Below are positions 4,538 through 30,628 of a stretch of 32,247 nt of DNA, in pieces (positions within the stretch are counted from its first letter, which is position 1; each line of letters begins with the position of its first letter). The notes beneath the pieces were generated by a model, which worked only from the letters and a program-made list of their open reading frames with translations, had not been told where the DNA came from and searched no databases. Position numbers and translations under genes: made by a program. Origin of the DNA: Thermoplasmatota archaeon (GTDB taxonomy: Archaea > Thermoplasmatota > Penumbrarchaeia > Penumbrarchaeales > Penumbrarchaeaceae); NCBI GenBank assembly GCA_016928095.1, contig JAFGLL010000088.1, forward strand, positions 1 through 32,247, read 5' to 3'.

Positions 4538-5041
<504 letters not shown>

Positions 5042-5043
5042 AG

Positions 5044-7050
5044 ATGCCGAAGGAGAAGGAGGCTCCGAAAGAGCCAGAGGGACCGAAGGAAGATGAGGGA
5101 GCGGAGAGACCCAGGTTCAGACCTGCTCAGGCAATTCCCCCCATAGCGTTGATGGGGGTCTTCATCATCGTGACAGTTGGTCTGTCCCTCATCGTCGGCC
5201 CTCTCTATGATTCATATGGCCTCTCCTCCGGGTTCGAGGAGTTCGCCCAGGGGGACTACTGGTATCTTTATGCCTTCGGCTTCGTCATGATGATGGTGGT
5301 GGTGGCTGTAGGTATCCTTCTTCTGAGAAAGCTCCTGAAGCGGAGGAAGCTGAAGCTGAAATACCTCTTCGCCTTTGTCGTGTTCACCTCCACTTTCGTC
5401 GTGGTACAACCTTTCATCGATGTGGCCTTCAACGGGGCTCCCCCGGTTTGGAAGGAATTCTATTATGATGTCGATGAGGTGGAAAGAGCCGTCCCCCTGG
5501 ATCCCGCAGATATGGGTTTTGGATTGATAGTAGTGACCAACTCCTCTTTCCATGTCCTGGAACGTAAAATGTATGATTACAAGGAGATCGGGTCCATAGA
5601 GGGAATTTCAGATATTACCGACCCGCATTATAACCTTGGATACTGGGTGATATCCGGTATAAGGGATTCTGATCGCATCGCATGGACCATTGATAAATTC
5701 GGATCCATTGAGGAGAGAGGCGCTATCCTACATACAAATTCAACATTCCATTTTATAGGGGTCAATATTGCAAATGTGGAGGAGACACCTTACGTTCTCT
5801 CTTTTTGGGAGCATGAAGATCTCTGGTCGATCGGCGTGAACACACTGTCTCCAGCTTTCGAATTCCAGGAGATCTCGTACTTTGATCAAAACAGCGGCCC
5901 CTTGTATCCGGTCTCCGGTTGGTCCTTCGGGAATAACTATTACTGGAATGAAACCGGAGTCAGGGAGATAAGTTATACAATTCGAGACCTTGATAGCAAG
6001 GAAGTGGTGATACGCGGTGGTAGTTATGCGGGTACTATGTCTATCCACTGGGGAAAAGCAGAAGGGAATCATGCTCTCTACTGGCATAACTCGACATATG
6101 TCAGTCAAGTGAAAAGCAACGAAAATCTGTACGTGAACAACGGAGATTTCGCCACTGTGATATTCTCGGGAAAGGTCATTTCCGGGTACTTTTGCTCCTA
6201 TTCGTATGATAAGGAAGAAGATGGTCCTTTCCCTGATCGAAGCAGAACGATAGTCGTCCGCGGTTCCAGGATGACCGTTGCGACCCAGGACAGTATGTAT
6301 GGAGAAGATTATGAACTCACGAATTCAAACACAGTAGCGGTTTATCAGGAAAGTGTGGATGGGAAGATATGGTTGGTATCCACCGATGGTGCAAGTACCG
6401 GACCGATCAGCACAAAGGATCGGGGCCAGATCCATATCCAGATAATTTCATTTTTGATCGCAGCGACACTCGTCGCGGCACTTTTGATAAGACCGAAATG
6501 GTGGCTCGTGGACCTCGGGGGTCTCCTCATGGGAGCCGGTGTGATCGCAATAATGGGAATTTCTTTCCCCATACTGTTCATCATGCTCCTGCTCGTACTT
6601 CTTGCTGTATATGATTTCATATCAGTATACAAGACGAAGCATATGATCGCCCTGGCGGATTCCGTCGTGGAAGCGAAGATGCCGATCCTTCTCGTATTCC
6701 CCATGAAATGGTCCTACCGCTACGAGGACGAGACCAATCTGATGGACCCCAAACGAAAGAGGGAATCCCTCTTCATGGGCCTAGGTGACGTCATCATCCC
6801 CGGAATATTCATCCTCTCTATCGCAACCTTCCTGGATCCGGTTGGCGGAATACGGCTCTTCGATCTGTTCTATCCACCCGTGGCCGTTGCATTCTTCGCA
6901 CTAGCAGGGATGCTCGTTGGATGGGGTTCATTGATGTTCTTCGTCCTCAAGGGAAAGGCCCATGCAGGTCTTCCTCCGATCAATTCGGGAACGATATTGG
7001 GTTTCATCATAGGACACCTTATCATCTACGGGACCATTGTTTTCTGGTAG
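5044..7050 (+). CDS. presenilin/signal-peptide-peptidase-like intramembrane aspartyl protease (A22) with large extracytoplasmic insertion
   Basis: This is probably a GxGD-type protease that cuts transmembrane segments of other membrane proteins. It has 668 residues if it starts at the ATG at 5044; a GTG at 5038 is the alternative. A charged Pro/Glu/Lys-rich N-terminal tail (1-30) is followed by three TM helices (about 33-55, 72-94, 107-127). A hydrophilic region rich in Tyr, Trp and Asn with several N-glycosylation sequons spans 128-460. Six more helices follow (about 463-668). TM6 carries YD (catalytic Asp524), TM7 begins with GLGD (catalytic Asp582), and GLPPIN near 642-647 sits where family members carry the PAL-type motif before TM9. 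The nine-TM core is therefore complete. Archaeal homologues as I know them are near 300 residues, so the insertion about doubles the length. Its fold is unknown; repeated short Trp/Tyr strands suggest all-beta. Confidence 0.85.
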   Translation: MPKEKEAPKEPEGPKEDEGAERPRFRPAQAIPPIALMGVFIIVTVGLSLIVGPLYDSYGLSSGFEEFAQGDYWYLYAFGFVMMMVVVAVGILLLRKLLKRRKLKLKYLFAFVVFTSTFVVVQPFIDVAFNGAPPVWKEFYYDVDEVERAVPLDPADMGFGLIVVTNSSFHVLERKMYDYKEIGSIEGISDITDPHYNLGYWVISGIRDSDRIAWTIDKFGSIEERGAILHTNSTFHFIGVNIANVEETPYVLSFWEHEDLWSIGVNTLSPAFEFQEISYFDQNSGPLYPVSGWSFGNNYYWNETGVREISYTIRDLDSKEVVIRGGSYAGTMSIHWGKAEGNHALYWHNSTYVSQVKSNENLYVNNGDFATVIFSGKVISGYFCSYSYDKEEDGPFPDRSRTIVVRGSRMTVATQDSMYGEDYELTNSNTVAVYQESVDGKIWLVSTDGASTGPISTKDRGQIHIQIISFLIAATLVAALLIRPKWWLVDLGGLLMGAGVIAIMGISFPILFIMLLLVLLAVYDFISVYKTKHMIALADSVVEAKMPILLVFPMKWSYRYEDETNLMDPKRKRESLFMGLGDVIIPGIFILSIATFLDPVGGIRLFDLFYPPVAVAFFALAGMLVGWGSLMFFVLKGKAHAGLPPINSGTILGFIIGHLIIYGTIVFW

Positions 7051-7104
7051 ACCAGAAAGGTTATCACCGGATAGGACTTCAAGTCAAACGGAGCGTATCG
7101 GGGT

Positions 7105-7836
7105 TTGAACGAGAACCTAGCTGTCCTGGGGGTCCTTCTGCTTCTGGGCATCTTACAGGGGCTTACGGTCTGCAATCTCACATGCGGTCCCCTGCTCTTT
7201 CTCCGCCTGGCAGGTAGGGGAAATGGTGCGAAGGAAGGCTTGAGGATATCCATCCTTTACGCCCTTCCGAGGGTCCTTGTACTAACGACACTGGGAGCAT
7301 TGCTCGGGGCTGTTGGATATACCGTGACCACCATCGGCAGTTTCTCGCAGCACGCTTGGTTCCAGGCAGTGATCTACATGATCATAGGCCTGGTCATGAT
7401 CGCGACAGGACTTGTCTTCATTGGTGTTCTTAAAAGAAGGGGTCACCATGCCAAACCCCGTCCCAGGGACCGACTGATCATCTATCTCATGAAGCTGGGC
7501 CCAAGGAAAGGAAAAGGGGAAGGTCGGACGATGTTCGGTATAGGCATCCTTGTTTCGCTGGTATGCTTCGTCGAGGCTTCTGCAGCGGCCATGACCGTCG
7601 CGGGTCTGCTCGGGATCGATGCGGAAAGTATCGGTAGCGGTTTCATCCTGGGAGCCCTCTCCATGCTCTCCTATTCGATCGGTCTGACCGTGCCCCTTGT
7701 CCTTCTGGGAACCGGAGCCTCAGCGATCGGAAAGAGGTTGAGGGCCGGGGATGCCAGAGCCGTTGGTGGTGTGCTCCTGATCGCCATTGGGGCGATCATA
7801 ATCATCTTCGAGGTGATCTCCCTCTTCGCGCTTTGA
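7105..7836 (+). CDS. six-TM membrane protein, CcdA/DsbD/UreH-like transmembrane family
   Basis: The 243-residue protein has six predicted TM helices in two halves separated by a basic, His-containing loop (about 110-140). TM1 contains VCNLTCGP (Cys23, Cys27) and TM4 contains Cys154 in VCFVEAS. That arrangement resembles the cysteines of CcdA/DsbD-type electron-transfer proteins and the related UreH-like membrane family (PF13386). Thiol-redox transfer across the membrane or metal/sulfur transport are both possible. The start is a TTG at 7105 with GGAG at 7090-7093, which is weakly supported. It follows the presenilin-like gene by about 55 nt and its last 35 nt overlap the convergent DUF123 gene. 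Confidence 0.6.
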   Translation: MNENLAVLGVLLLLGILQGLTVCNLTCGPLLFLRLAGRGNGAKEGLRISILYALPRVLVLTTLGALLGAVGYTVTTIGSFSQHAWFQAVIYMIIGLVMIATGLVFIGVLKRRGHHAKPRPRDRLIIYLMKLGPRKGKGEGRTMFGIGILVSLVCFVEASAAAMTVAGLLGIDAESIGSGFILGALSMLSYSIGLTVPLVLLGTGASAIGKRLRAGDARAVGGVLLIAIGAIIIIFEVISLFAL

Positions 7837-11195: not shown

Positions 11196-14100
11196 ATGTA
11201 CGATCACCTTTTCCGAACAACGGCGGTTATACTGCTTCTGTTCGCTCTTTTAAGCATCCCGCAGGGTCTGGCCGACTCCTCCGGACCAGTTGCATCGGGA
11301 GATTGGGAACTGCGGGAAGTGGCACCGTTCGATTGGACAGGATGGGACGGGGATGTCGACGGGGACAGGATAGATGATCTGTTGGAAGGTGACCCTTTAG
11401 CCCTGGATGGGAACGGTGATAAGATAGGTATCAACATCCATTTCCGCTACTATCCGACACCCAACGACGTAGCAAGGGTCCAGGAGTCGCTTTCATCGCT
11501 TGGACCCGGTGCCGTATTCCACAGGGTAGGTACCTCCTCCACCGCGATATATCTCTCGATCCCCAGGACCCTTGCCCCGGACATACGATCCATTCTCCGC
11601 CAGGACATTTCCATGATAGAATACAGGCCAGTATATGTGAACTTCCTCGATGTATCGTCACCGGCAACAAGGTCCAGAGGGTCCAGCATCTACTCTCCAT
11701 TGACCGCATCCGACCTGGGGTATACCGGGAACGGAATTGTCGTGGCGGTCATCGACTCCGGTGTCGATAACACCGTCCATGAATCCTTGAGGGGAAAATA
11801 TGTCTACGGCGTAGATTTCACGGGTACTACCATCGTACAAGGGCTCGATCCTGATGACATTGACGGCCACGGGACACATGTGGCGGGTACCGTCATGGGT
11901 ACCGGGGGAAACCAGGGCATTTATCAGGGTACAGCTCCCCTGGCACAGCTGGTCGACCTTCGGTATGCAAGGGTACAGGGGGATTTCACTGGAGCTGCTG
12001 ACAGGGCTCTGGAATGGGTGTTGGAGAACCATGAGGAATACGACATCAGGGTGGTCTCATGCTCCTGGGGCTCAACGGTCTTCACTTCCGGGAAAGATAC
12101 GACCTCGCGCCTTGTTGACCAGCTTGTCGAGGACGGTGTGGTCGTCGTGGTTGCCGCAGGCAACGATGGAGGACAGGGTATGCCGAGTCCCGCGTCCGCC
12201 GATGGGGCTCTGACCGTCGGGGCGCTGAACGACAGGTCATCGATCGATAGGAACGATGACACGATCGAATACTATTCCAATTACGGGCCGCGCTCGTCGG
12301 ACGGTGACAGCGACCGGATCGACGAGCTCAAACCTGATATCGTGGCTCCGGGAAGCGATATCCATGCCCCCAAGCACAATTCCATAGCTGATTATGTGGA
12401 TATGTCCGGTACATCGATGGCGACCCCACATATATCGGGTATCGCTGCCCTGATGTTGGAAGCTGATCCCGGGCTGACCCCCGAGGCAGTGAAGCTGATC
12501 CTCCGGGACACCGCAGAGCAGATGCTTTCACCCTCCAGGACAGACCTGGACACGAAATACAATTACAGGTCTGGATGGGGAGCAGTGGATGCCTACGGTG
12601 CAGTGAAGAGGGCGGAGGACCTGATGAATTTCGAGCTTTCCGTCCCTGAGCAGGTCCAACTGAACGATGCCACGAACATCGAGCTGACAGGTCCGTTCAC
12701 AAAGACGGATCATGATACTCAGGGGGACCAGGTCATGATGGAAGTGAGGTCCCCGGGTGATTGGGGCATCCCGACCGATGTTTCGGTGGACCCTGGTTCG
12801 TCAGGAGCGACATACAGGACCCAGGGCCCGATACTGCTCGGTACTGAATGGGTATCGAGGGCCTATATCGATTACAACACTTCGACCGAGGGGTCGATGC
12901 CGAGACTTGCTCTCAAGGTGAGACCATTGGGAAGGACCGGCGAGACAAGGACCTTCAACGGTGCAGTATCGATGAACGGTATCGAGGGCACAGTCGAGGG
13001 TGTGAACTCCACGATAGTCTATGATACCTCACCACCTGACCTGTCGATCACCCCTCTTGCCGTATGGATCTCCGATAACCGTCCCGAGGGAGGGGACCGA
13101 ATAACGATAACGGCACGTGTGAACAATACGGGATCCATGGATGTCAAAGATGCTCTGGTGCGTTTCATCGACGGACCCGAGCTAACGGGGACGGTCATCG
13201 GCGAGGAGTCCATAGATGTTCAAAGCGGGGGTTTTGGAATCGCCGAGGTGATATGGGAAGCGAACCCGGGCATACATGCCATCACGGTGGTTGCGGACCC
13301 GGACGATGAGATAGACGAATCCAATGAGGACAATAATTCGGCAGAGCGGCCTGTATCTGTACTGGGGTTCAATCCCCCCCCTGTAGCCCGGCTCGAGGTC
13401 CTTCCCGCTACAGGGACCACCGGTACAAGATTCACGTTCGACGGCTCCGGGTCCACGGATACCAACATCAGGGGTGGTGCGGTGGTGTCCTACAATTACG
13501 ATTTCGGGGACGGGGTCACAACGGGATGGATCGACCTGTCCGAGGTCACTCATTTCTATTCCCGAGGTGGGACATACACCGCCAAGCTTCGTGTCAGGGA
13601 CAACGGAGGGGAGGAGAGTACCAATACCGATGAGGTGTCGGTGAATGTCACCGAGATAAGCTCGGATGAAATGGACCTTTACTTCACCGATGATATGCGC
13701 CTATCGAACGATCCGGGGCCGGCAATGCCCTTCGAGGTACCATTTGCGACCTCACCCGGTAACATCGGGACCTGGGAGACCGACAGTATCGAGAGGAGCT
13801 TGATCCTACATTCGACCGTCAGAACGTATCTGGTGCTGAGCTCGATGGACCAGAGCCAGCTCGAGATAGTTATCCGGATGGTGACCGGATCGGGTGAGGT
13901 CTCCGAAACGGCCGTTCTCGATCATCCGGGTGGCGGTGTCAACAGGACCATGGAGCTGATCTTGAGCATCGAGGAACTGGAGGTCAAGAGTGGCACCAGG
14001 ATCGCCATAGGTGTTTCCGGGGATTCGAATACCTCCGGTGTGCGATTATGGGTAGGCGAGGGAGGTTCGACGATATCATTCCTCTATTATCTGGCCATGA

Positions 14101-15575
14101 ACGAGGCCCCCATCATCGATGCGGGGGAGGACAAGGATGTCAAAGCGCAGACCAGTGTGACCTTCACGGGAACCGCTGTGGACCCCGACGGTGAGGTGGT
14201 CGAGGTACGTTGGGATGTGGACTCCGATGGTGAATGGGAGATCGCATACGGGAATGAGCTGTCCTACACATATCCGGGATATGCCTCTGAGGGGCAGTAT
14301 ACCGCCAGATTGGAGGTCATGGACGATGACGGTCTCTGGTCCATGGATACCCTCATGGTCCTTGTCAGATCTGCAGATTACAATTATCCCCCCTCGGTGA
14401 CGATAACATGCCCGGAAGGTCCCCTCAAGGGACCGGTCACGCTTAGTGGGACGGCCAGCGACGATGATGAGGTCGATATGGTGGAGGTGCGTCTGGAGGG
14501 AGAGCTTGTTTCCACCGATTGGGAGCTGGCGAGCGGAGAGGAGGAATGGACCTTCCAGATGGACACACGTGTGTACGAGAACGGCAAGTACAACGTTCAT
14601 GCCAGAGCTTTTGATGGGGATCGTTATTCTCCCACAGCAACATGCGAGATCGTTGTCCAGAATCCCAATTCCCCGCCGATGATGATCCGGGTGTCAGCAA
14701 CTCCGATACCTTTGTACATAGACGGGGAGACACCTCTGCTCCTTTCCGCCGAGGTTGACGATCCGGACCTTCCCGGGGATGAGCTGACGGTCGTTGTGGA
14801 CCTGGGCCCTCTGGGAGGCCCTTCACAGGTTTACCTGAGGGATGACGGTGAACAACCCGACCCCGTGGAGGACGATGGGGAGTACACCATCGGGTTCATC
14901 CCGTCCTTCGATACGGCTCCCGGGGTCTATGCATTGATGATAAAGGTCTTCGACAGACAGGGTTCCTTCGAACAGGACGAGGTAGAGGTCGAACTCTCCT
15001 CCGTGCTAGATCTCAAGTTCTCCATGAGCGATGATGAGGTGCTCGAGGGGCGTACCGTCCATCTGGAACTTGAAACAGGTCCACTGGTCTCGATGATCGA
15101 AGTGAGGTTCGTCTCCGAGGTGGTGAAAGATGGGGGCGAGATCGAGTTGAAGGATGACGGTGGGAACGGAGACAGGGTCGCAGGGGATTCGATATACTCG
15201 GCGGACCTTGTCATCCTTGCCCCGCCAGGAAGATACGCATATACCCTGAAGGTGATCCTAGGGAACGGAAGTGAATTGTTCAGGGAGGAGGGTTCGATCA
15301 AGGTCATCTCCAATTCAGATGAGCGGTCAGGAGGGAGTGTTGTCCTTCCCGTTGTCCTGGTGGTGCTCGGAGTGATCGTACTTGCCATCGTGGCCGTTCT
15401 ACTTGTAGTTCTCGTCGACAGGACCAGGATGAGAGAGGGGGGAGAAATATATGAGGCCATCATAGAGGAACCGCTACCTCCAATCCCGGATGAAAGGCCC
15501 TACGTCGTCGCTGAGGTCCTAGATCAGTTTTCCGTCGAGAGCCAGATGCCATCCGTAACCCACAGCTCCCATTGA
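11196..15575 (+). CDS. giant cell-surface subtilisin-like serine protease (S8) with CARDB and PKD domains
   Basis: The 1459-residue protein starts with a signal peptide (about 1-26). A propeptide-like region precedes an S8 catalytic domain with Asp187 (VIDSGVD), His225 (DGHGTH), Asn323 (AAGND) and Ser407 (SGTSMATPH), all intact. A stalk of extracellular modules follows: CARDB (about 623-720), PKD (727-818, with YDFGDG), a second PKD-like domain (968-1059), an Ig-like domain (1065-1160) and two modules with a DDG..D....D..Y pattern. A C-terminal TM helix (about 1385-1405) is followed by a short acidic, Pro-rich cytoplasmic tail. It is therefore a wall-anchored protease with the active domain outside, probably for degrading external protein or processing surface proteins. 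Its last 57 nt overlap the convergent YdjM-like gene. Confidence 0.93.
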   Translation: MYDHLFRTTAVILLLFALLSIPQGLADSSGPVASGDWELREVAPFDWTGWDGDVDGDRIDDLLEGDPLALDGNGDKIGINIHFRYYPTPNDVARVQESLSSLGPGAVFHRVGTSSTAIYLSIPRTLAPDIRSILRQDISMIEYRPVYVNFLDVSSPATRSRGSSIYSPLTASDLGYTGNGIVVAVIDSGVDNTVHESLRGKYVYGVDFTGTTIVQGLDPDDIDGHGTHVAGTVMGTGGNQGIYQGTAPLAQLVDLRYARVQGDFTGAADRALEWVLENHEEYDIRVVSCSWGSTVFTSGKDTTSRLVDQLVEDGVVVVVAAGNDGGQGMPSPASADGALTVGALNDRSSIDRNDDTIEYYSNYGPRSSDGDSDRIDELKPDIVAPGSDIHAPKHNSIADYVDMSGTSMATPHISGIAALMLEADPGLTPEAVKLILRDTAEQMLSPSRTDLDTKYNYRSGWGAVDAYGAVKRAEDLMNFELSVPEQVQLNDATNIELTGPFTKTDHDTQGDQVMMEVRSPGDWGIPTDVSVDPGSSGATYRTQGPILLGTEWVSRAYIDYNTSTEGSMPRLALKVRPLGRTGETRTFNGAVSMNGIEGTVEGVNSTIVYDTSPPDLSITPLAVWISDNRPEGGDRITITARVNNTGSMDVKDALVRFIDGPELTGTVIGEESIDVQSGGFGIAEVIWEANPGIHAITVVADPDDEIDESNEDNNSAERPVSVLGFNPPPVARLEVLPATGTTGTRFTFDGSGSTDTNIRGGAVVSYNYDFGDGVTTGWIDLSEVTHFYSRGGTYTAKLRVRDNGGEESTNTDEVSVNVTEISSDEMDLYFTDDMRLSNDPGPAMPFEVPFATSPGNIGTWETDSIERSLILHSTVRTYLVLSSMDQSQLEIVIRMVTGSGEVSETAVLDHPGGGVNRTMELILSIEELEVKSGTRIAIGVSGDSNTSGVRLWVGEGGSTISFLYYLAMNEAPIIDAGEDKDVKAQTSVTFTGTAVDPDGEVVEVRWDVDSDGEWEIAYGNELSYTYPGYASEGQYTARLEVMDDDGLWSMDTLMVLVRSADYNYPPSVTITCPEGPLKGPVTLSGTASDDDEVDMVEVRLEGELVSTDWELASGEEEWTFQMDTRVYENGKYNVHARAFDGDRYSPTATCEIVVQNPNSPPMMIRVSATPIPLYIDGETPLLLSAEVDDPDLPGDELTVVVDLGPLGGPSQVYLRDDGEQPDPVEDDGEYTIGFIPSFDTAPGVYALMIKVFDRQGSFEQDEVEVELSSVLDLKFSMSDDEVLEGRTVHLELETGPLVSMIEVRFVSEVVKDGGEIELKDDGGNGDRVAGDSIYSADLVILAPPGRYAYTLKVILGNGSELFREEGSIKVISNSDERSGGSVVLPVVLVVLGVIVLAIVAVLLVVLVDRTRMREGGEIYEAIIEEPLPPIPDERPYVVAEVLDQFSVESQMPSVTHSSH

Positions 15576-17380: not shown

Positions 17381-17428
17381 TATCTTATGGTGGTCGATGT
17401 GATCGGATCTGAGAAGGAGAGTATGCCC

Positions 17429-19996
17429 ATGGAGCCAAGGAAGTTCATGATCTCGTTGCTCCTGACGATCCTGCTTTCTGGAGCTGGCCTGATTGCCTTA
17501 TCAGGTAATGGAGAAGGTTCAGTCGATGTTCCAGGGAACGGCCCTTCTCCACCAAGCATCATAATAGATGATCGAATGACCGATGAAATGGCGGATGATC
17601 CTGTGTGGAGTTTCGTCCATTTCAACGGGCGGGGGAACGGTCAGGAGCTGTCCGCAGGTATCGAAAGAACGGGAGCACAGGTCAGGCGGGTATATGATAT
17701 CGCCCCGGTGATATCGGTTTTGTTCTCATCAATGGACCAGGTCCGCTCCGTCAGCGAGATGGAAGGGGTTACCCGTATCGAGGCACAGTCATCGGTCCGC
17801 ACGATGATGGATATCTCCACCGCTTCGATCAAGGCAAACCCTTCCAGTTTATACAGTCCAAGGACCGCAAGGGGACTCGGTATGACGGGGGATGGGATCA
17901 CCATCGCGATAATAGATTCTGGTGTGGATAATGAGCATCCCACACTTCAGGGGTCCTTTGTTGCAGGTGTCGACCTCACTTTACCCATCAATACTCCTCT
18001 GAACCCTGATGATGGGTCGTTCGATCCCGACGATCGCAACGGTCACGGCACCGGGGTTGCATCGATAGCTCTTGGTAGAGGGGGTCCGGAAGGGAATTAC
18101 ACTGGAGTGGCCCCTTCGGCCGGGCTTATAGATATCAAGGTTGTTGGATTGAACGGCCTGACCATGAACCAGAACAGCCTTATGGATGCTTTCCAGTGGT
18201 GTTCGGACAACAAGGATACCGTTTGGGGGGATACAGGATATACGGGTGTGGATATCATATCGATAAGCCTTGGTATAGGGGGAGGGGCAGGAGCCTTGAC
18301 CCAGGCAATGGACCAGCTTGTGGGGGAAGGTGTCGTTGTAGTCCAGAGCGCCGGGAATTCCGGGTCGCCTTACGGGGATGATTCAGGTACGACCTGGGCT
18401 GACAGGTCGATCGTCGTCGGAGCTGTCAACGACCAGAGGACCATTGACCGATCGGATGATGAGTTCTGGTCGTCATCGACCTACGGACCAAGGACGGATG
18501 ATGGTGATAACAATCCTTATGATGAGCTGAGACCGGATGTCGTCGCTCCAGGAGTCTCCATCACTTTCGCGTCGTCATCGAGGACCTCAAGATTGCAGGG
18601 AGCCAACGGGTGGTCCACAGGATCTGGAACTTCCTATTCCACCCCTCATGTGTCGGGTACCGTGGCATTGATGCTCCAGGCAAAGGGTTCTCTGTCGCCT
18701 ACCGAACAGAACAATCACATTTCAATGATACTGCATCAGTCCTCCGAGCCCAGGGGCGAACCCTATGATGTTACCCTCTCGACCACATACGATACGAAGT
18801 ACGGATACGGTCTCCTGGATGCTTACGAGGCCGTGAAGACCTCGCTGACATACATACCGGTGAACCACAGGCCGGAGATCACCTATTTTGCCGTGGAGCC
18901 TAATGTTACTACCGCGGGATCCACCTGCCGGATCAGAGCAGTGGCATCGGATGTGGACGAGGAGATGCTCACTTATACCCTGACCGTTGATGACGGTGTT
19001 CTTACGGGTGATGGACCGATATGGGACTGGAAAGCCCCCTCGGAACCGGGCAAGTACTACTTCAACCTGGCCGTTACGGATGTATCAGGAGGGAAGGACA
19101 CCGCCTCGACCTATGTTCTGGTCGAAGAAGGGCCTCCGAACAGACCCCCCGTGATAACATCCTTCAAGACCGACCTATCGGTGGTCCCCGTCGGTGGTAC
19201 AGCGAACCTGAGGGTCATAGCCATTGATCAGGACGGTGATGAGCTCGGATATGACTATGTTGCTGAAAGAGGGTCCATCCAGGGCACGGGGGATGAGGTG
19301 GTCTACAGGGCACCGTCCCAACCCGTTCGTGATAGGATATCGGTGACAGTATCGGACGGAAGAGGAGGTACGGATACCAGTTCGCTGGAGATAGATGTGA
19401 GGGAGGAAGCTGTCAATTCACCTCCCGTGATCACCCTGGTGACCTTGGAGCCGGGGGTCATCGATTCCAACACCTCCGGGGAGAGGGTGGTGCTCTATGC
19501 CCAGATAGACGACCCTGACGGTCTGGAGGATATTGATGTGGTGATAGCGGACCTGAGCTCCATCGGAGGTGTTTCCGGAGTGGAGATGCTCAACAACGGT
19601 GTCGATCCGGACGTTGCAGCAGGGGACCTGGAGTTCACTCTCGAGCTGCCATCCATCGCAGATCTGGACAATGGTACCTACACGATCTTCGTCACTGTCT
19701 ACGACATCGGCGGTGGCTCCGATACGGCATCTGTGAAGCTGATAGTGGATATACCTTACTCCTCTACCGATGTGGAAGGACACCAGAAGGGAATAGGTAC
19801 GATGACCCTGCTTTTCCTCATTGTGGCCATCGTCCTGATCGTGATCGTTCTGGTCGCAGTATTCGTCCTCAGGTCCAGATCGAAGCGGGAAGCCGTAATA
19901 CCCCGTCAGGGGCAGTATCCAGTTCAATATCAGACCGCGGAGAACACACACCCTTATCAGACCGCCCCAAAGTTCAAGCCCGTGGGTCCTAGGTAG
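17429..19996 (+). CDS. membrane-anchored subtilisin-like serine protease (S8) with Ig-like domains
   Basis: The 855-residue protein begins with signal peptide MEPRKFMISLLLTILL. The ATG at 17429 is chosen because AGGAG (17415-17419) lies 9 nt upstream; in-frame ATGs at 17387 and 17423 fit less well. The catalytic residues Asp163 (IIDSGVD), His206 (NGHGTG), Asn310 (SAGNSG) and Ser402 (SGTSYSTPH) are intact. Three Ig-like modules follow (about 478-570, 570-660, 662-775), then a TM helix (790-814) and a basic, Gln/Pro-rich cytoplasmic tail ending in PKFKPVGPR. It is a smaller relative of the giant subtilase at 11196. The 3' end lies one nucleotide from the convergent trmJ gene. Confidence 0.93.
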   Translation: MEPRKFMISLLLTILLSGAGLIALSGNGEGSVDVPGNGPSPPSIIIDDRMTDEMADDPVWSFVHFNGRGNGQELSAGIERTGAQVRRVYDIAPVISVLFSSMDQVRSVSEMEGVTRIEAQSSVRTMMDISTASIKANPSSLYSPRTARGLGMTGDGITIAIIDSGVDNEHPTLQGSFVAGVDLTLPINTPLNPDDGSFDPDDRNGHGTGVASIALGRGGPEGNYTGVAPSAGLIDIKVVGLNGLTMNQNSLMDAFQWCSDNKDTVWGDTGYTGVDIISISLGIGGGAGALTQAMDQLVGEGVVVVQSAGNSGSPYGDDSGTTWADRSIVVGAVNDQRTIDRSDDEFWSSSTYGPRTDDGDNNPYDELRPDVVAPGVSITFASSSRTSRLQGANGWSTGSGTSYSTPHVSGTVALMLQAKGSLSPTEQNNHISMILHQSSEPRGEPYDVTLSTTYDTKYGYGLLDAYEAVKTSLTYIPVNHRPEITYFAVEPNVTTAGSTCRIRAVASDVDEEMLTYTLTVDDGVLTGDGPIWDWKAPSEPGKYYFNLAVTDVSGGKDTASTYVLVEEGPPNRPPVITSFKTDLSVVPVGGTANLRVIAIDQDGDELGYDYVAERGSIQGTGDEVVYRAPSQPVRDRISVTVSDGRGGTDTSSLEIDVREEAVNSPPVITLVTLEPGVIDSNTSGERVVLYAQIDDPDGLEDIDVVIADLSSIGGVSGVEMLNNGVDPDVAAGDLEFTLELPSIADLDNGTYTIFVTVYDIGGGSDTASVKLIVDIPYSSTDVEGHQKGIGTMTLLFLIVAIVLIVIVLVAVFVLRSRSKREAVIPRQGQYPVQYQTAENTHPYQTAPKFKPVGPR

Positions 19997-21940: not shown

Positions 21941-24900
21941 GTGTATCGAGTCTGGATGATGATCATATCCCTCCTGATACCCGCAGTGGTCCCCTTCACG
22001 GGACAGGCCGGGTCCATCCATTCACAGACCCGGATATCGTACGATCTCGTATTCAACGGAACCTGCGTGATCGATGTGGGTACAAACGTGACATGGGAGA
22101 ACCAGCAGGTGTCATGCGAGTATGGATTGAACAACAGCGGGACCCTTCTCATCATGAACTCCACGGTGAACATGGGAGACTCGTTCATCCACAACACAGG
22201 ATGGATCAACATGGTCAACTCCACAATCCTAGTAGGAGGGCCGGGGATGTTCAACCAGGGTTATCTCAATATGACCGATCTGGATGGTGATCAGGGTACA
22301 GCCGAGGACGGGTCGTTACTCATCGGCACACGGAACTCCTCATCAGGAGAATATCCCCTCATGCAGATGGTGATCAACCTCAGGTCCACTTTGAACGCGA
22401 CACGTTCCCGCATCGATGGTCTCAGGCTTTCCGCGGGGAACCAGTTCCTGAAAGAGCTCACAATGAGGAATTCCACAATCATACGACCGAACTGGGGATC
22501 ATCCCTCGGATCGATGGAGATGTACGGAAATGGGAGTGCCACGGCCATAGAATGCTTCCACTCCATCTCCCTCACGGACATCCACATTACGGACTATGAA
22601 AAGGGAGTGGTCCTGAAAGGACCAAAAACATACACCCATCTTGTTATCTCGAACTGCGGGACCGGTATTGAAGTTGGATCGACAGGTACCACATTGGAGG
22701 ATTCAATCCTGACGAACAACACGATACAGATCATATCATCGGCGAACCTGACCATCATCGATACAGAGGTCAAGAATGGGCAGATCTATCTATCCACCAC
22801 CGGGACCTCGACCATTCATGGGAGTTCGTTTCTGAATATGACCTCGATAGAGGGCCTCTCGAGAGGGGTTGTCAGGGATTCGGAGTTCACAGGTTGCACG
22901 ATCGCCCTGGAGCGTCCCTTCAACTCCATCATCACAAGGAACCGGTTCACATGGAACCAGAAGGCCGTCGAGGAAGGGGAAGATTGTATCTTTTTCCACA
23001 ATTCCTTCATCGGGAACAAAATGATCGTGACAGGTCCACTTCTTTCGACCTGGTACAATGAAAACCTGACGGAAGGGAACTATTACGACATTTACATGGG
23101 TAAAGATGACGGGTCGAAAGGCAGGCCTTGCGGTGACGGGGTCGGTGATACGGATATCCCATTCCTGGCAAGGGACCCTTATCCTCTCCTGCAGGACATG
23201 TACTGGGATATGCCCACGATCCCCGTGCTGGAGGTGAGGTATCAGCAGGGGTCGGACAGGGTTGACCTGAGCTGGGAGGCCGGTGGAACACGTTATATCG
23301 TCCAGAGGTCCACCTCGGAGGATTTCTCGACAAGATTGGTATCGTGGTCCACTGCAGATGCCGCACTTTCCGTTCACAACAACGAGAACACGACCCTGTA
23401 TTTCAGGGTCCGTGTCTACAATACGATCGGATCGAAAGGGTGGAGTATGACCAAAAAGGTCGAGGTGAACCAGTTCCCGTTGCCTCCGAGCGTCATCTGG
23501 TTGGACCCCGTTCCCGAGGGAAAGGCCATGAAGGTCAGTTGGAAATGGGATGGAGAAGACCTGTACAGGGCTTTGATCTACTACGGTCACGGGCTATCGG
23601 ATAGCAGCGTTGTCGGGGTCTATTACCCGGAATCAAGCGTGGTGATAGACAACCTCATGAACGAATTGGAGTATTCGTTCATTATTATCACCATGGACCA
23701 TTCCGGGCTCACTTCTGAAAGTACCATGGTAATGAAGGGAGTTCCACGGGATACGGTCCCCCCACCCCCTCCAAGGGGTCTCATTGCCCGGACCAGGACC
23801 AATGCATCCATCGCTCTGGAATGGAGCCCACCTTTGACCCAGGACCTCTGGGGATATGTGATCTACCGTCGTGACCCGGGTTCGATGGAATTCCATGAGC
23901 TCACCAGGCTCTCCAAGTCCGTCCTCTACTATGAGGACAGAGGGCTTTCCGACAATACCACTTATGAATATGCGATGGCTACCATCGATGATGATGGTCC
24001 CATCTCGGTGCTTTCGGAGATCGTTTCCAACACAACGGCCCACAACAATCAGAGGCCTATCTTCATCGGCTCCGAATTGATAATCTACATGGTAGAGGAC
24101 GAAGGTCCCTCTAACAGCAGGATACTGGAGCATTTCCTTGATCCGGACGGTGACCCTTTGGTCTTCAGCATCGTCGAATATTTTCCTTTCTATGCAATGA
24201 TCGCTGAAGGTCTTCTATGGGTGGTCCCGGAACCTGACCAGGCCGGCGAGGGGTATGTGCAGATAGGGGTTTTCGACGGTGAAGAATATTCCTATTATCT
24301 GATAGGAGTACTTGTCGAGCCGGTGGAGGACCCTCCGCGGAATGTACGTATCATAAGTCCAGTGAACGGCAGTATAATACTCCCCGGGACAATGGTGGTC
24401 CTTGAAGCTTCGGGATACGATCCGGATGTCGACAACGGTGATGTCCTGAATGTCACATGGACATCGGACAGGGATGGTCAGCTCCAGATCAGCACTCAGT
24501 CGATAATGAGGACGGTAAGAGAGCTTGGTCCGGGAAAGCATCTGATCTCGATCACCGTCGAGGATAAGGCCGGCAATGTCGCCAGGGATTCGGTAGAGGT
24601 CATGGTATCCCTGTGGGGTTGGGGTGAGGTCCCCTGGAGGGTCGCCTTCTCGGACCCGGAACGCAGGATAGACCTGACGGACCCGTATCTCGAGATCACA
24701 ATAAACAACGATTCCCCCCTCGTTCTGAGGTTCCATATCCAGGGTGAGATCGGAGGGATATCACTCTCCGGAGAACGGAACGTGCTGATCGGACCGATGT
24801 CCAGCGGTAATATTGCCCTTGAGGTCCCGACAGGTCTCGATCCGGACGATGAGTTGCTGGTCGGTCTTGCAATAGAGGTCCAGACCCTGAACGGGACCTA

Positions 24901-25075
24901 TGGGGGCACGATGGAGATATCCGATGTTTACAGAGTGGTATCCGGAAATGATACAGGGTCCACAGAAGCCTGGATGGTCATCATCATCATTGCGGTTTCC
25001 ATCCTGGCCTTGATCGGTATAAGCTCATATACCATTATCAGCCTGAAGACCAGGAACGACCGCAAAGGTGATTAG
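21941..25075 (+). CDS. secreted/anchored beta-helix protein with fibronectin type III and Ig-like domains
   Basis: The 1044-residue product starts with a signal peptide (MYRVWMMIISLLIPAVVPFT) from a GTG; ATGs at 21956 and 21959 are alternatives. Residues ~35-420 hold repeated short strands such as GTLLIMNSTVNMG and GMFNQGYLNMTD with many Asn-X-Ser/Thr sequons, resembling a right-handed parallel beta-helix of the NosD/pectate-lyase-like type. FN3-like modules follow (about 435-510, 511-600, 606-700), then cadherin/Ig-like domains (703-900) and a further beta region. A C-terminal TM helix (about 1010-1034) ends in a short basic tail. Extracellular polysaccharide or surface binding is possible; no catalytic residues can be assigned. 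It lies 30 nt upstream of hypE on the same strand. Confidence 0.8.
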   Translation: MYRVWMMIISLLIPAVVPFTGQAGSIHSQTRISYDLVFNGTCVIDVGTNVTWENQQVSCEYGLNNSGTLLIMNSTVNMGDSFIHNTGWINMVNSTILVGGPGMFNQGYLNMTDLDGDQGTAEDGSLLIGTRNSSSGEYPLMQMVINLRSTLNATRSRIDGLRLSAGNQFLKELTMRNSTIIRPNWGSSLGSMEMYGNGSATAIECFHSISLTDIHITDYEKGVVLKGPKTYTHLVISNCGTGIEVGSTGTTLEDSILTNNTIQIISSANLTIIDTEVKNGQIYLSTTGTSTIHGSSFLNMTSIEGLSRGVVRDSEFTGCTIALERPFNSIITRNRFTWNQKAVEEGEDCIFFHNSFIGNKMIVTGPLLSTWYNENLTEGNYYDIYMGKDDGSKGRPCGDGVGDTDIPFLARDPYPLLQDMYWDMPTIPVLEVRYQQGSDRVDLSWEAGGTRYIVQRSTSEDFSTRLVSWSTADAALSVHNNENTTLYFRVRVYNTIGSKGWSMTKKVEVNQFPLPPSVIWLDPVPEGKAMKVSWKWDGEDLYRALIYYGHGLSDSSVVGVYYPESSVVIDNLMNELEYSFIIITMDHSGLTSESTMVMKGVPRDTVPPPPPRGLIARTRTNASIALEWSPPLTQDLWGYVIYRRDPGSMEFHELTRLSKSVLYYEDRGLSDNTTYEYAMATIDDDGPISVLSEIVSNTTAHNNQRPIFIGSELIIYMVEDEGPSNSRILEHFLDPDGDPLVFSIVEYFPFYAMIAEGLLWVVPEPDQAGEGYVQIGVFDGEEYSYYLIGVLVEPVEDPPRNVRIISPVNGSIILPGTMVVLEASGYDPDVDNGDVLNVTWTSDRDGQLQISTQSIMRTVRELGPGKHLISITVEDKAGNVARDSVEVMVSLWGWGEVPWRVAFSDPERRIDLTDPYLEITINNDSPLVLRFHIQGEIGGISLSGERNVLIGPMSSGNIALEVPTGLDPDDELLVGLAIEVQTLNGTYGGTMEISDVYRVVSGNDTGSTEAWMVIIIIAVSILALIGISSYTIISLKTRNDRKGD

Positions 25076-28465: not shown

Positions 28466-29419
28466 TCAAGCTCCCTGAGGTCTTACCACTTCCACACTGG
28501 ACAGTATATCCTCCACAATGCTTTTGGGGGAAATGCCATCAAGTTCACTGTCCAATGATAGAGTGAGCCTGTGCGGGACCATCTTCCTCGCGACCCTCTT
28601 GACATCGTCGGGAATGACGTAATCCCTTCCGGCCAGTGCAGCAGCCGCCTTGGAAGCATACAGGATCTGCTCACCCGCTCTTGGACTGGCCCCCAGTACG
28701 ATCTTGTCATTGACCCTGGTCGCATGGACCACATCCCGTATGTATGTGAGGATGCTCGTGTCAGCTCTGCATGAGTGGGAATCCCTGAGGAAGACCTGGT
28801 AGATATTCTCCCCCAGCGGTCGGTGTTTCTGAGCTCTCCAGTCACGGTTCTTCAATGCCAGGAGCCTCAATTCATCCGAGACGGATAGATAATCCATTAT
28901 ACTTTTCACCATGAACCGATCAAGCTGGGCTTCGGGTAGAACATATACGCCTTCGTGCTCTACGGGGTTGATAGTGGCGATCACCAGGAACGGCTCCTCG
29001 AGCTTGAAGGTCGTGCCCTCCACGGTGACCTGCTTTTCTTCCATGGCCTCGAGAAGGGCCGACTGGGTCTTGGTAGGAGCCCGGTTGATCTCGTCCGCAA
29101 GGACTATATTGGAGAATATCGGACCCTTCCTGAAATTGAACTCCTGCTGTTTTTGGTTGTAGAAATAGTGTCCGGTAATATCCGCTGGCAGGAGGTCCTG
29201 AGTGAACTGGATCCTCTTGAAGGTCAACCCCACGACATCGGACAGGGTCTTTGCCAGCGTTGTCTTGGCTATACCGGGAACACCCTCCAGAAGGATGTGA
29301 CCCCCGGCGGAGAGACAGATAAGGAAATCCTCGATTATATCCTCATATCCGATGATGGACCTGCTTATTTCGACCTTCACCCTCTGATACAGGTCCTGCG
29401 ATCCTGTTCCCATGTTCAT
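28466..29419 (-). CDS. MoxR family AAA+ ATPase
   Basis: MoxR ATPases act as chaperone-like machines that mature or activate envelope and redox complexes, usually with von Willebrand factor A partners. The 317-residue product has Walker A GVPGIAKT (46-53), Walker B VLADE (106-110), the MoxR signature EINRAPTKTQSALLEAMEE, a sensor motif ATINPVEHEG and LPEAQLDRF. The C-terminal lid includes GASPRAGEQIL. It overlaps the upstream DUF4350 gene by 4 nt (ATGA), indicating translational coupling. A DUF58/vWA partner gene, the usual companion, is not adjacent. Confidence 0.93.
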   Translation of the reverse strand: MNMGTGSQDLYQRVKVEISRSIIGYEDIIEDFLICLSAGGHILLEGVPGIAKTTLAKTLSDVVGLTFKRIQFTQDLLPADITGHYFYNQKQQEFNFRKGPIFSNIVLADEINRAPTKTQSALLEAMEEKQVTVEGTTFKLEEPFLVIATINPVEHEGVYVLPEAQLDRFMVKSIMDYLSVSDELRLLALKNRDWRAQKHRPLGENIYQVFLRDSHSCRADTSILTYIRDVVHATRVNDKIVLGASPRAGEQILYASKAAAALAGRDYVIPDDVKRVARKMVPHRLTLSLDSELDGISPKSIVEDILSSVEVVRPQGA

Positions 29420-30525
29420 CCCCCTATATCATTAATCAATCTCTCAAGCACTTTCCTGTCCCAATCAGGGTGCCTTCCCATGACAACCTGGATAGGTGTG
29501 CTTCCATCACCAGGTCCAACCGGTTCCTCCGATAGAAACCTGTCGATAAGCTGCCTCGCCGATCTAATGATCTTTCTCGGGAGTGCAGTATTAAAAACCA
29601 GGAACACAATGGAAAGAGCGATCATTATTCCGATCTTCTGGATCGGGTCAAATGCTGACATGAAGGAATTTGTCAACTGCACTGGGTTCTCCAGGTCGCG
29701 ATGGGATTCATCGATCATCACGTTCTCCTTCCCTTCTGTCAGGGATCGAAAAAGGTTCCGAACGAAGATCCCGTTATCCATCTCATCCCTCATCTGATTG
29801 ATGAGCAGGCTAGGTTCCGAGAGGACGACGAGCATTCCCCGCCCGTATCTCTCCACAGTGAGTATCGGGAATGGTCCCTGAGGTTCGTCCGGGTCCCACC
29901 ACCCGTTCTTGTCAAGGCTCAGCCAGGAGGTCCTCGATGAATTGATGACAGCCACCGCCTTCGATGAAGGTACCACTATGGATGGCATGTTCATGAGCAG
30001 CATGGTCAGGTTCCGGGTGATCTCGTGTTCGGAGAACTCGGTGGTTACAGCGAAATTGCTGCTCTTCATGTAGGAGAGGTCCAGCATTGTCCTGCCTGAT
30101 ATCCTCGTGGTCGTATTGAGGAACGATAGCAGTTCGTTACCTGTCCCGAAATCGTCCGCTAGCAGGAGAGAACCTCCATTGGAGAGGAAATCATGGGCGA
30201 ATTCACCCTCCTTCCTTGTAAAAGTCAGATCTGGTCCGATGATAAGAAGTGATGACCTTGAAGGCCTGATGTCTCCTGTCGTCTCCGAGAAAGAACTGTG
30301 TACGACCCTTTCCTCGGAAGATGCGGACAGATCGATGGTCGGGACAAAGGATCCGGCCGAATACGTGTCCTTCCCCAATTCGGAGCATCCGTTCCATCCG
30401 GTGTTGTATATGGAGAAATCGGAATCCGAAGAAAGAACGGGTATCATCACGGAGAACAGAAGGAGTATCATTCCCGCACCCAATACGAGAAGGTACCTGT
30501 AAGCCGTTCTCACCTGTTCTATCAT
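29416..30525 (-). CDS. DUF4350-type membrane protein
   Basis: The product (369 residues from the ATG at 30525) has an N-terminal TM helix (about 14-32), an extracytoplasmic domain with LLIIGPDLTFTRKEGEFAHD and FLSNGGSLLLADDFGTGNEL, and a second TM helix near 310-330 (GIMIALSIVFLVFNTAL) followed by a cytoplasmic tail. This matches DUF4350, a GATase-like extracytoplasmic domain found beside moxR and DUF58 genes in bacteria and archaea. Its function is unknown. The frame is open to a TTG at 30582, but the TM follows the 30525 start well. It is the first gene of the operon, behind the shared TATA element at 30629-30641. Confidence 0.8.
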   Translation of the reverse strand: MIEQVRTAYRYLLVLGAGMILLLFSVMIPVLSSDSDFSIYNTGWNGCSELGKDTYSAGSFVPTIDLSASSEERVVHSSFSETTGDIRPSRSSLLIIGPDLTFTRKEGEFAHDFLSNGGSLLLADDFGTGNELLSFLNTTTRISGRTMLDLSYMKSSNFAVTTEFSEHEITRNLTMLLMNMPSIVVPSSKAVAVINSSRTSWLSLDKNGWWDPDEPQGPFPILTVERYGRGMLVVLSEPSLLINQMRDEMDNGIFVRNLFRSLTEGKENVMIDESHRDLENPVQLTNSFMSAFDPIQKIGIMIALSIVFLVFNTALPRKIIRSARQLIDRFLSEEPVGPGDGSTPIQVVMGRHPDWDRKVLERLINDIGG

Positions 30526-30628
30526 ATGGACACACGACCTTCCATGGACCATTCCCCGATCCTTTCTGTAAAGAATGACCAAGGACGTTCAACGGTAGTG
30601 AGAATATCGTTCAACATAAATGTTTCGA

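What the first reader, a model, noticed from the sequence alone, without database searches (positions are those of the whole stretch)
5044..7050. Presenilin-like protease with a ~330-residue extracytoplasmic insertion between TM3 and TM4
The nine-TM core with YD (Asp524), GLGD (Asp582) and a GLPPIN motif is complete, yet residues 128-460 form a large hydrophilic region outside the membrane. Archaeal presenilin homologues that I know are near 300 residues. The insertion could be a substrate-recognition or gating domain built into the protease, similar in purpose to nicastrin in gamma-secretase. Catalytic motifs are seen directly; the gating idea is inference.
Basis: partly seen in the sequence, partly recalled or inferred. 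Interest (0 to 1): 0.78.

Follow-up and report, generated by a model that had tools for sequence, protein, structure and literature searches.

The report
Presenilin-type protease with built-in outer domain
An uncultured archaeon makes a membrane-embedded protease related to presenilin (the Alzheimer's-linked enzyme) with a large extra domain, probably a beta-propeller, spliced into its outer face; the same arrangement runs through several lineages of this archaeal phylum and may work like nicastrin, the separate partner that screens substrates for our own enzyme.

Summary
Window 5044-7050 (+) encodes a 668-residue A22/PSH intramembrane aspartyl protease (PF06550 1.5e-51; NCBIfam PSH 215 bits against a cut-off of 125). 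YD (Asp524), GLGD (Asp582) and GLPPIN are in place, and a 331-residue non-membrane stretch (131-461) lies between TM3 and TM4. Positive-inside charges put that stretch outside the cell.

The insertion is not unique. It sits at the same point in all 10 genomes of the window's class that have an A22 match, in nearly every complete A22 gene of a second family (50 of 54 genomes, open frames 684-902 aa), and in at least three more lineages of the phylum. The other archaeal A22 genes examined are about 300 aa.

In one relative (L064) the insertion is clearly an FG-GAP-type beta-propeller (Pfam above cut-off; AlphaFold model matching propellers at 1e-7). The window's own insertion is all-beta, diverged and poorly modelled; its best non-presenilin structural matches are propellers, so 'propeller' is likely but not shown. 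It is under purifying selection yet evolves about four times faster than the catalytic core.

Most likely role: a covalently attached, nicastrin-like ectodomain that selects substrates by their outer part. This is inference. New variant of a known kind.

The parts
5044..7050 (+). A22/PSH intramembrane aspartyl protease gene, 668 aa (alternative GTG start at 5038)
5122..5433 (+). TM1-TM3 (residues 27-130); strongly positive TM2-TM3 loop (RRKLKLK), so cytoplasmic
5434..6426 (+). Inserted extracytoplasmic domain, residues 131-461, all-beta, probably a diverged beta-propeller; 4 N-x-S/T sites, net charge -23
6427..6633 (+). TM4-TM6 (residues 462-530)
6610..6615 (+). YD motif, catalytic Asp524 (TM6); invariant in 40 aligned homologues
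6778..6789 (+). GLGD motif, catalytic Asp582 (start of TM7); G579, G581 and D582 invariant in 40 aligned homologues
6967..6984 (+). GLPPIN motif, the archaeal counterpart of PAL, before TM9
4538..5041 (+). Upstream operon partner: adenosine-specific kinase (PF04008, 6.8e-73)
7105..7836 (+). Downstream operon partner: CcdA/DsbD-like membrane protein (PF13386, 6e-11)

Best explanation
The gene encodes a single-chain, presenilin-type (A22/PSH) protease that cuts transmembrane segments with Asp524 and Asp582. Between TM3 and TM4, on the outer face of the membrane, it carries a folded all-beta ectodomain of the beta-propeller kind, tethered at both ends. The ectodomain most likely sits over the side of the enzyme where substrates enter and screens them by their outer part, either excluding proteins that still have bulky ectodomains or binding a particular class. 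It would do in cis what nicastrin does as a separate gamma-secretase subunit. Shown: family, motifs, topology by charge, insertion site, conservation across lineages, propeller fold (predicted) in a relative. Inferred: propeller fold in the window's own copy (about 0.7), substrate gating (about 0.45), protease activity.
For: Family and motifs. Nine TM helices and an all-beta insertion. Extracytoplasmic side by charge; in family f18 five of five aligned inserts keep the same two cysteines, as expected for an outer disulfide. Same insertion point (column about 105-109 of a 310-column A22 profile) in all lineages that have it. Propeller in relative L064: BBS2_Mid 3.5e-14, FG-GAP_3 6e-7 and FG-GAP, all over cut-off, and a model with 1212 PDB matches at E<=0.001, the best 50 listed being WD40-type or other propeller proteins. 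For the window's own model the best non-presenilin matches are mainly propellers (LGI1 EPTP domain 2.1e-4; clathrin terminal domain, WDR26, Groucho). Insertion dN/dS 0.19 against 0.047 for TM4-9, with 54% against 89% identity between two species of one genus. In gamma-secretase TM3 and TM4 of presenilin contact PEN-2, nicastrin's ectodomain touches PEN-2, and nicastrin hinders substrates with long ectodomains (PMC7248309).
Against: The window's own insertion has no significant Pfam or PDB sequence match, no profile-level link to the FG-GAP inserts, no excess of FG-GAP motifs, and a model below pLDDT 50 over most of its length. Most archaeal PSHs lack any ectodomain, and the experimentally studied PSH is active without partners (PMC9282858), so an ectodomain is not needed for catalysis. 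No natural substrate of an archaeal PSH was found in the papers read.
Confidence: 0.55

Rival explanations
1. The ectodomain is a sensor: it binds an extracellular ligand or ion and switches the protease on or off, with no direct part in choosing substrates.
For: Propellers are common ligand-binding domains (own knowledge); FG-GAP inserts in L064/L021 keep DxDxDG-type loops typical of calcium sites; the insertion evolves fast while the core is nearly frozen.
Against: The window's own insertion does not keep the calcium-type loops; no other signalling module is seen in the operon.
Confidence: 0.2
2. The ectodomain is an assembly or anchoring platform that holds the protease next to partner proteins such as the secretion machinery, the neighbouring CcdA-like protein or the cell surface layer.
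For: Propellers often act as scaffolds (own knowledge). The order adenosine-specific kinase - protease - CcdA-like gene is kept across genera of family f1. In L109 the inserted protease is followed by an A24 prepilin peptidase gene.
Against: The neighbours differ between lineages with the insertion (L015, L064, L021, L109, L112), so no single partner fits all.
Confidence: 0.2
3. The insertion is a passenger: an ectodomain gained by chance with little effect on the protease, or an assembly or annotation artefact.
For: The inserts of the different lineages share little sequence, and one lineage holds an unrelated Ig-like DUF11 domain at the same site.
Against: Purifying selection (dN/dS 0.19 and 0.27); presence in all 10 genomes of the class with a match and in 50 of 54 of family f18; same insertion point. 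A chimera is excluded by independent genomes.
Confidence: 0.05

Closest known systems
Archaeal PSH / MCMJR1 of Methanoculleus marisnigri (PDB 4hyc, 4hyg, 4y6k)
   Same: Same family, catalytic motifs, nine TM helices, presenilin-like topology; 35-36% identity over TM4-TM9
   Different: 301 aa in 4hyc, without an ectodomain; this protein has 331 residues inserted between TM3 and TM4
Human gamma-secretase (presenilin 1 with nicastrin, APH-1, PEN-2)
   Same: Presenilin-type core with a large outer domain beside it; PS1 is matched by the model (TM 0.43 of target)
   Different: Nicastrin is a separate subunit and, from own knowledge, has an aminopeptidase-like fold; here the domain is in the same chain and all-beta, and no PEN-2 or APH-1 counterpart was looked for
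SPPL2a/b (eukaryotic A22B proteases with a lumenal PA domain)
   Same: A22 protease with a large non-cytosolic domain in the same chain (own knowledge)
   Different: There the domain precedes TM1 and is a PA domain; here it lies between TM3 and TM4
FG-GAP / BBS2-type beta-propellers (PF13517, PF14783, integrin-alpha-like)
   Same: The insertion of relative L064 belongs here by sequence and predicted fold
   Different: The window's own insertion shows no sequence membership

Membership tests
A22 / PSH intramembrane aspartyl protease (PF06550, NF041679) | Profile score over curated cut-off | tested here: met
   PF06550 176 bits (cut-off 23.9); NF041679 215.2 bits (cut-off 125)
A22 / PSH intramembrane aspartyl protease (PF06550, NF041679) | YD and GxGD aspartates in adjacent TM helices | tested here: met
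   D524 in TM6 and D582 at the start of TM7; both invariant in 40 homologues
A22 / PSH intramembrane aspartyl protease (PF06550, NF041679) | Nine TM helices with the PSH fold | tested here: met
   Nine long helices in the model; Foldseek to 4y6k/4hyg/4hyc, probability 1.00
A22 / PSH intramembrane aspartyl protease (PF06550, NF041679) | PAL motif before the last TM (defines the eukaryotic members; not required in archaea) | tested here: not met
   No PAL; GLPPIN stands there. MCMJR1, an active PSH, also lacks an obvious PAL (PMC2947513), so this is not disqualifying
A22 / PSH intramembrane aspartyl protease (PF06550, NF041679) | Proteolytic activity in the membrane | not testable with these tools
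   Needs expression and assay
Beta-propeller (window's own insertion) | Repeated four-stranded blades closing into a ring | tested here: inconclusive
   All-beta, strand-rich, non-presenilin Foldseek matches mainly propellers at best 2.1e-4, but pLDDT mostly below 50
Beta-propeller, FG-GAP type (insertion of relative L064) | FG-GAP repeats and propeller fold | tested here: met
   FG-GAP_3, FG-GAP and BBS2_Mid over cut-off; Foldseek 3.7e-8, TM up to 0.60 of target
Beta-propeller, FG-GAP type (window's own insertion) | FG-GAP / DxDxDG repeats | tested here: not met
   No Pfam match; one motif hit against one expected
Nicastrin | Aminopeptidase-like (mixed alpha/beta) ectodomain | tested here: not met
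   Insertion has no Pfam match and is modelled as mainly beta with only short helices, at low confidence; works-like is not membership

The most novel reading that the evidence does not exclude
Archaeal presenilins gained ectodomains more than once at one and the same outer loop (propellers in several Thermoplasmatota lineages, an Ig-like DUF11 domain in another). This would be a repeated, cis-acting counterpart of nicastrin, showing that ectodomain screening of substrates arose in archaea independently of gamma-secretase.
Probability: 0.35. Interest if true: 0.8.

Novelty: new variant of a known kind. Interest (0 to 1): 0.58.

Why it matters
How presenilin-type proteases pick substrates, and why gamma-secretase needs a large outer partner, is an open question studied mainly in a four-protein complex of about 20 helices. 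A one-chain archaeal enzyme with a built-in ectodomain, alongside many close relatives without one, would allow the effect of an ectodomain to be tested by deletion and by swaps at a natural site. It also shows that the picture of archaeal PSHs as bare cores of about 300 residues misses whole lineages of one phylum.

Tried and rejected
Assembly chimera or frameshift fusion: rejected, the same architecture is in independent genomes. ORFs of 395-517 aa in several other lineages (L053, L068, L070, L102, L103, L105): not insertions but upstream extensions of the frame, since the A22 profile matches them in one piece. Sequence link of the window's insertion to the FG-GAP inserts: none by profile comparison, PDB profile search or motif count. 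A second copy of the insertion in the genome: none. A stand-alone propeller gene beside the ordinary short forms, as a split nicastrin-like partner: none among the flanks held, by single-sequence search. Single origin of the insertion: not settled; the trees need 7-8 changes of state, of which at least 3 are forced by well-supported branches, and gain cannot be told from loss (the first tree wrongly counts two cut-off rows, L038 and L124, as long). The survey paper of archaeal homologues (Raut et al. 2021) is not held, so earlier mention of these insertions cannot be excluded; open-access searches found none.

Full report
WHAT IS THERE. The frame at 5044-7050 (+) gives 668 residues. It is a member of the A22 / PSH family by Pfam (PF06550, 1.5e-51), NCBIfam (NF041679 'presenilin family intramembrane aspartyl protease PSH', 215 bits, cut-off 125) and the PDB (4hyc, 1e-39). 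All three match only residues from about 464 to 660; TM1-TM3 are separated from them by the insertion. Asp524 (YD), Asp582 (GLGD) and GLPPIN are in place, and Y523, D524, G579, G581, D582, G642, L643 and P644 are invariant among 40 aligned homologues. It is the only A22 match in the genome.

TOPOLOGY. Hydropathy and the AlphaFold2 model agree on three helices before and six after the insertion. Charges alternate as the positive-inside rule expects, with the TM2-TM3, TM6-TM7 and TM8-TM9 loops positive and the insertion at net -23. The insertion is therefore extracytoplasmic and the enzyme is oriented as presenilin. In family f18 the inserts keep an invariant pair of cysteines in five of five aligned sequences, which fits an oxidising outer side. 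These are predictions; no topology experiment exists.

HOW COMMON. A profile built from the short archaeal forms (310 columns) shows in each long protein a break at column about 105-109, between TM3 and TM4, filled by 220-390 residues. In the window's class, 10 of 12 genomes have an A22 match. Those with complete genes are long forms (595-749 aa open frames); the three cut by contig ends also carry extra sequence before TM4. In another family of the phylum (f18), 54 of 58 sampled genomes in 11 genera have a match and 50 of them have open frames of 684-902 aa (count made from the list); eight of eight examined show the insertion at the same place, and of the four exceptions at least two are visibly partial. 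Further long forms are L064/L021, family f20 (L109) and family f10 (L112). A neighbour lineage of f18 (f28, two gene copies in one genome) lacks it, with only about 35 extra residues. Among the 80 best loci elsewhere (Methanosarcina relatives, Methanomicrobia, Bathyarchaeota, Aenigmatarchaeota) the forms examined are short. The window's genome belongs with 'Candidatus Thermoplasmatota archaeon' MAGs: L013 (Zod_Metabat.266) has the protein sequence of the same-genus genome G003, L015 (ETNP2_MAG_1) that of G011 of the same class.

WHAT THE INSERTION IS. In L064 it is an FG-GAP / BBS2-type propeller by Pfam (several families over cut-off), weakly by PDB sequence search (BBS2, 1.5e-4), and by predicted fold: an AlphaFold2 model with pLDDT of about 70-90 across the middle of the domain matches propellers at best 4e-8, with 1212 chains at E<=0.001. 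L094, from the window's own class, matches the L064/L021 profile by hhalign (84.8% probability, 6.6e-6). The window's own family (f1) has diverged beyond sequence recognition. Its model is nearly all beta strands but mostly below pLDDT 50; even so, the best non-presenilin structural matches are mainly propellers, led by LGI1 EPTP (2.1e-4). I put 'propeller' at about 0.7 for the window's own copy. In L117 (family f6) the same site carries a 94-residue DUF11 Ig-like domain (1.7e-8), so the loop has accepted more than one kind of domain.

SELECTION. Between the window and L013 the insertion is 54% identical with dN/dS 0.19, the TM4-9 core 89% identical with 0.047; between two relatives (L005, L010) 0.27 against 0.017. 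dS is near saturation in the first pair, so the ratios are rough. The domain is thus kept by selection but changes much faster than the catalytic part, as recognition surfaces often do.

CONTEXT. In family f1 the order adenosine-specific kinase - protease - CcdA/DsbD-like membrane protein recurs. Outside f1 the neighbours differ; in L109 the next gene is an A24 prepilin peptidase. No stand-alone propeller gene was found beside short forms.

MECHANISM. From gamma-secretase: substrate enters laterally near TM2/TM6, TM3 and TM4 of presenilin contact PEN-2, nicastrin's ectodomain contacts PEN-2, and nicastrin hinders substrates with long ectodomains (PMC7248309). PSH is active alone (PMC9282858). 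A domain tied at both ends to the outer ends of TM3 and TM4 would stand close to that side. The most likely role is screening of substrates by their outer part, in cis. This is an inference from position and evolution; sensing and scaffolding are live rivals.

VERDICT. Real, conserved and, as far as the readable literature shows, not described: a new variant of the known PSH family. Membership in A22 is firm; 'cis-nicastrin' is a works-like claim, not a membership claim.

Noticed in passing
window 4538-7836: Adenosine-specific kinase, inserted presenilin-type protease and CcdA/DsbD-like membrane protein form a gene order kept across genera of the same family; why these three go together is unclear.
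   Followed up: partly
L109:2096-3049: In family f20 the inserted A22 protease is followed by an archaeal A24 prepilin peptidase, putting two GxGD-type aspartyl membrane proteases side by side.
   Followed up: no
L117 (about residues 108-201 of the frame): A DUF11 Ig-like domain occupies the same TM3-TM4 site as the propellers, so this loop has received unrelated domains.
   Followed up: partly
L114 and L127 (G146): Two A22 copies without the long insertion in one genome of f28, the lineage next to f18, suggesting loss of the domain there.
   Followed up: no
window 11196-15575 and 17387-19996: Two large S8 subtilases with PKD/Ig-type repeats (1459 and 869 aa) lie downstream, with a third large Ig/fn3 protein at 21941-25075.
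   Followed up: no
window 28466-30582 (-): MoxR-type AAA ATPase next to a DUF4350 protein, overlapping by four bases.
   Followed up: no
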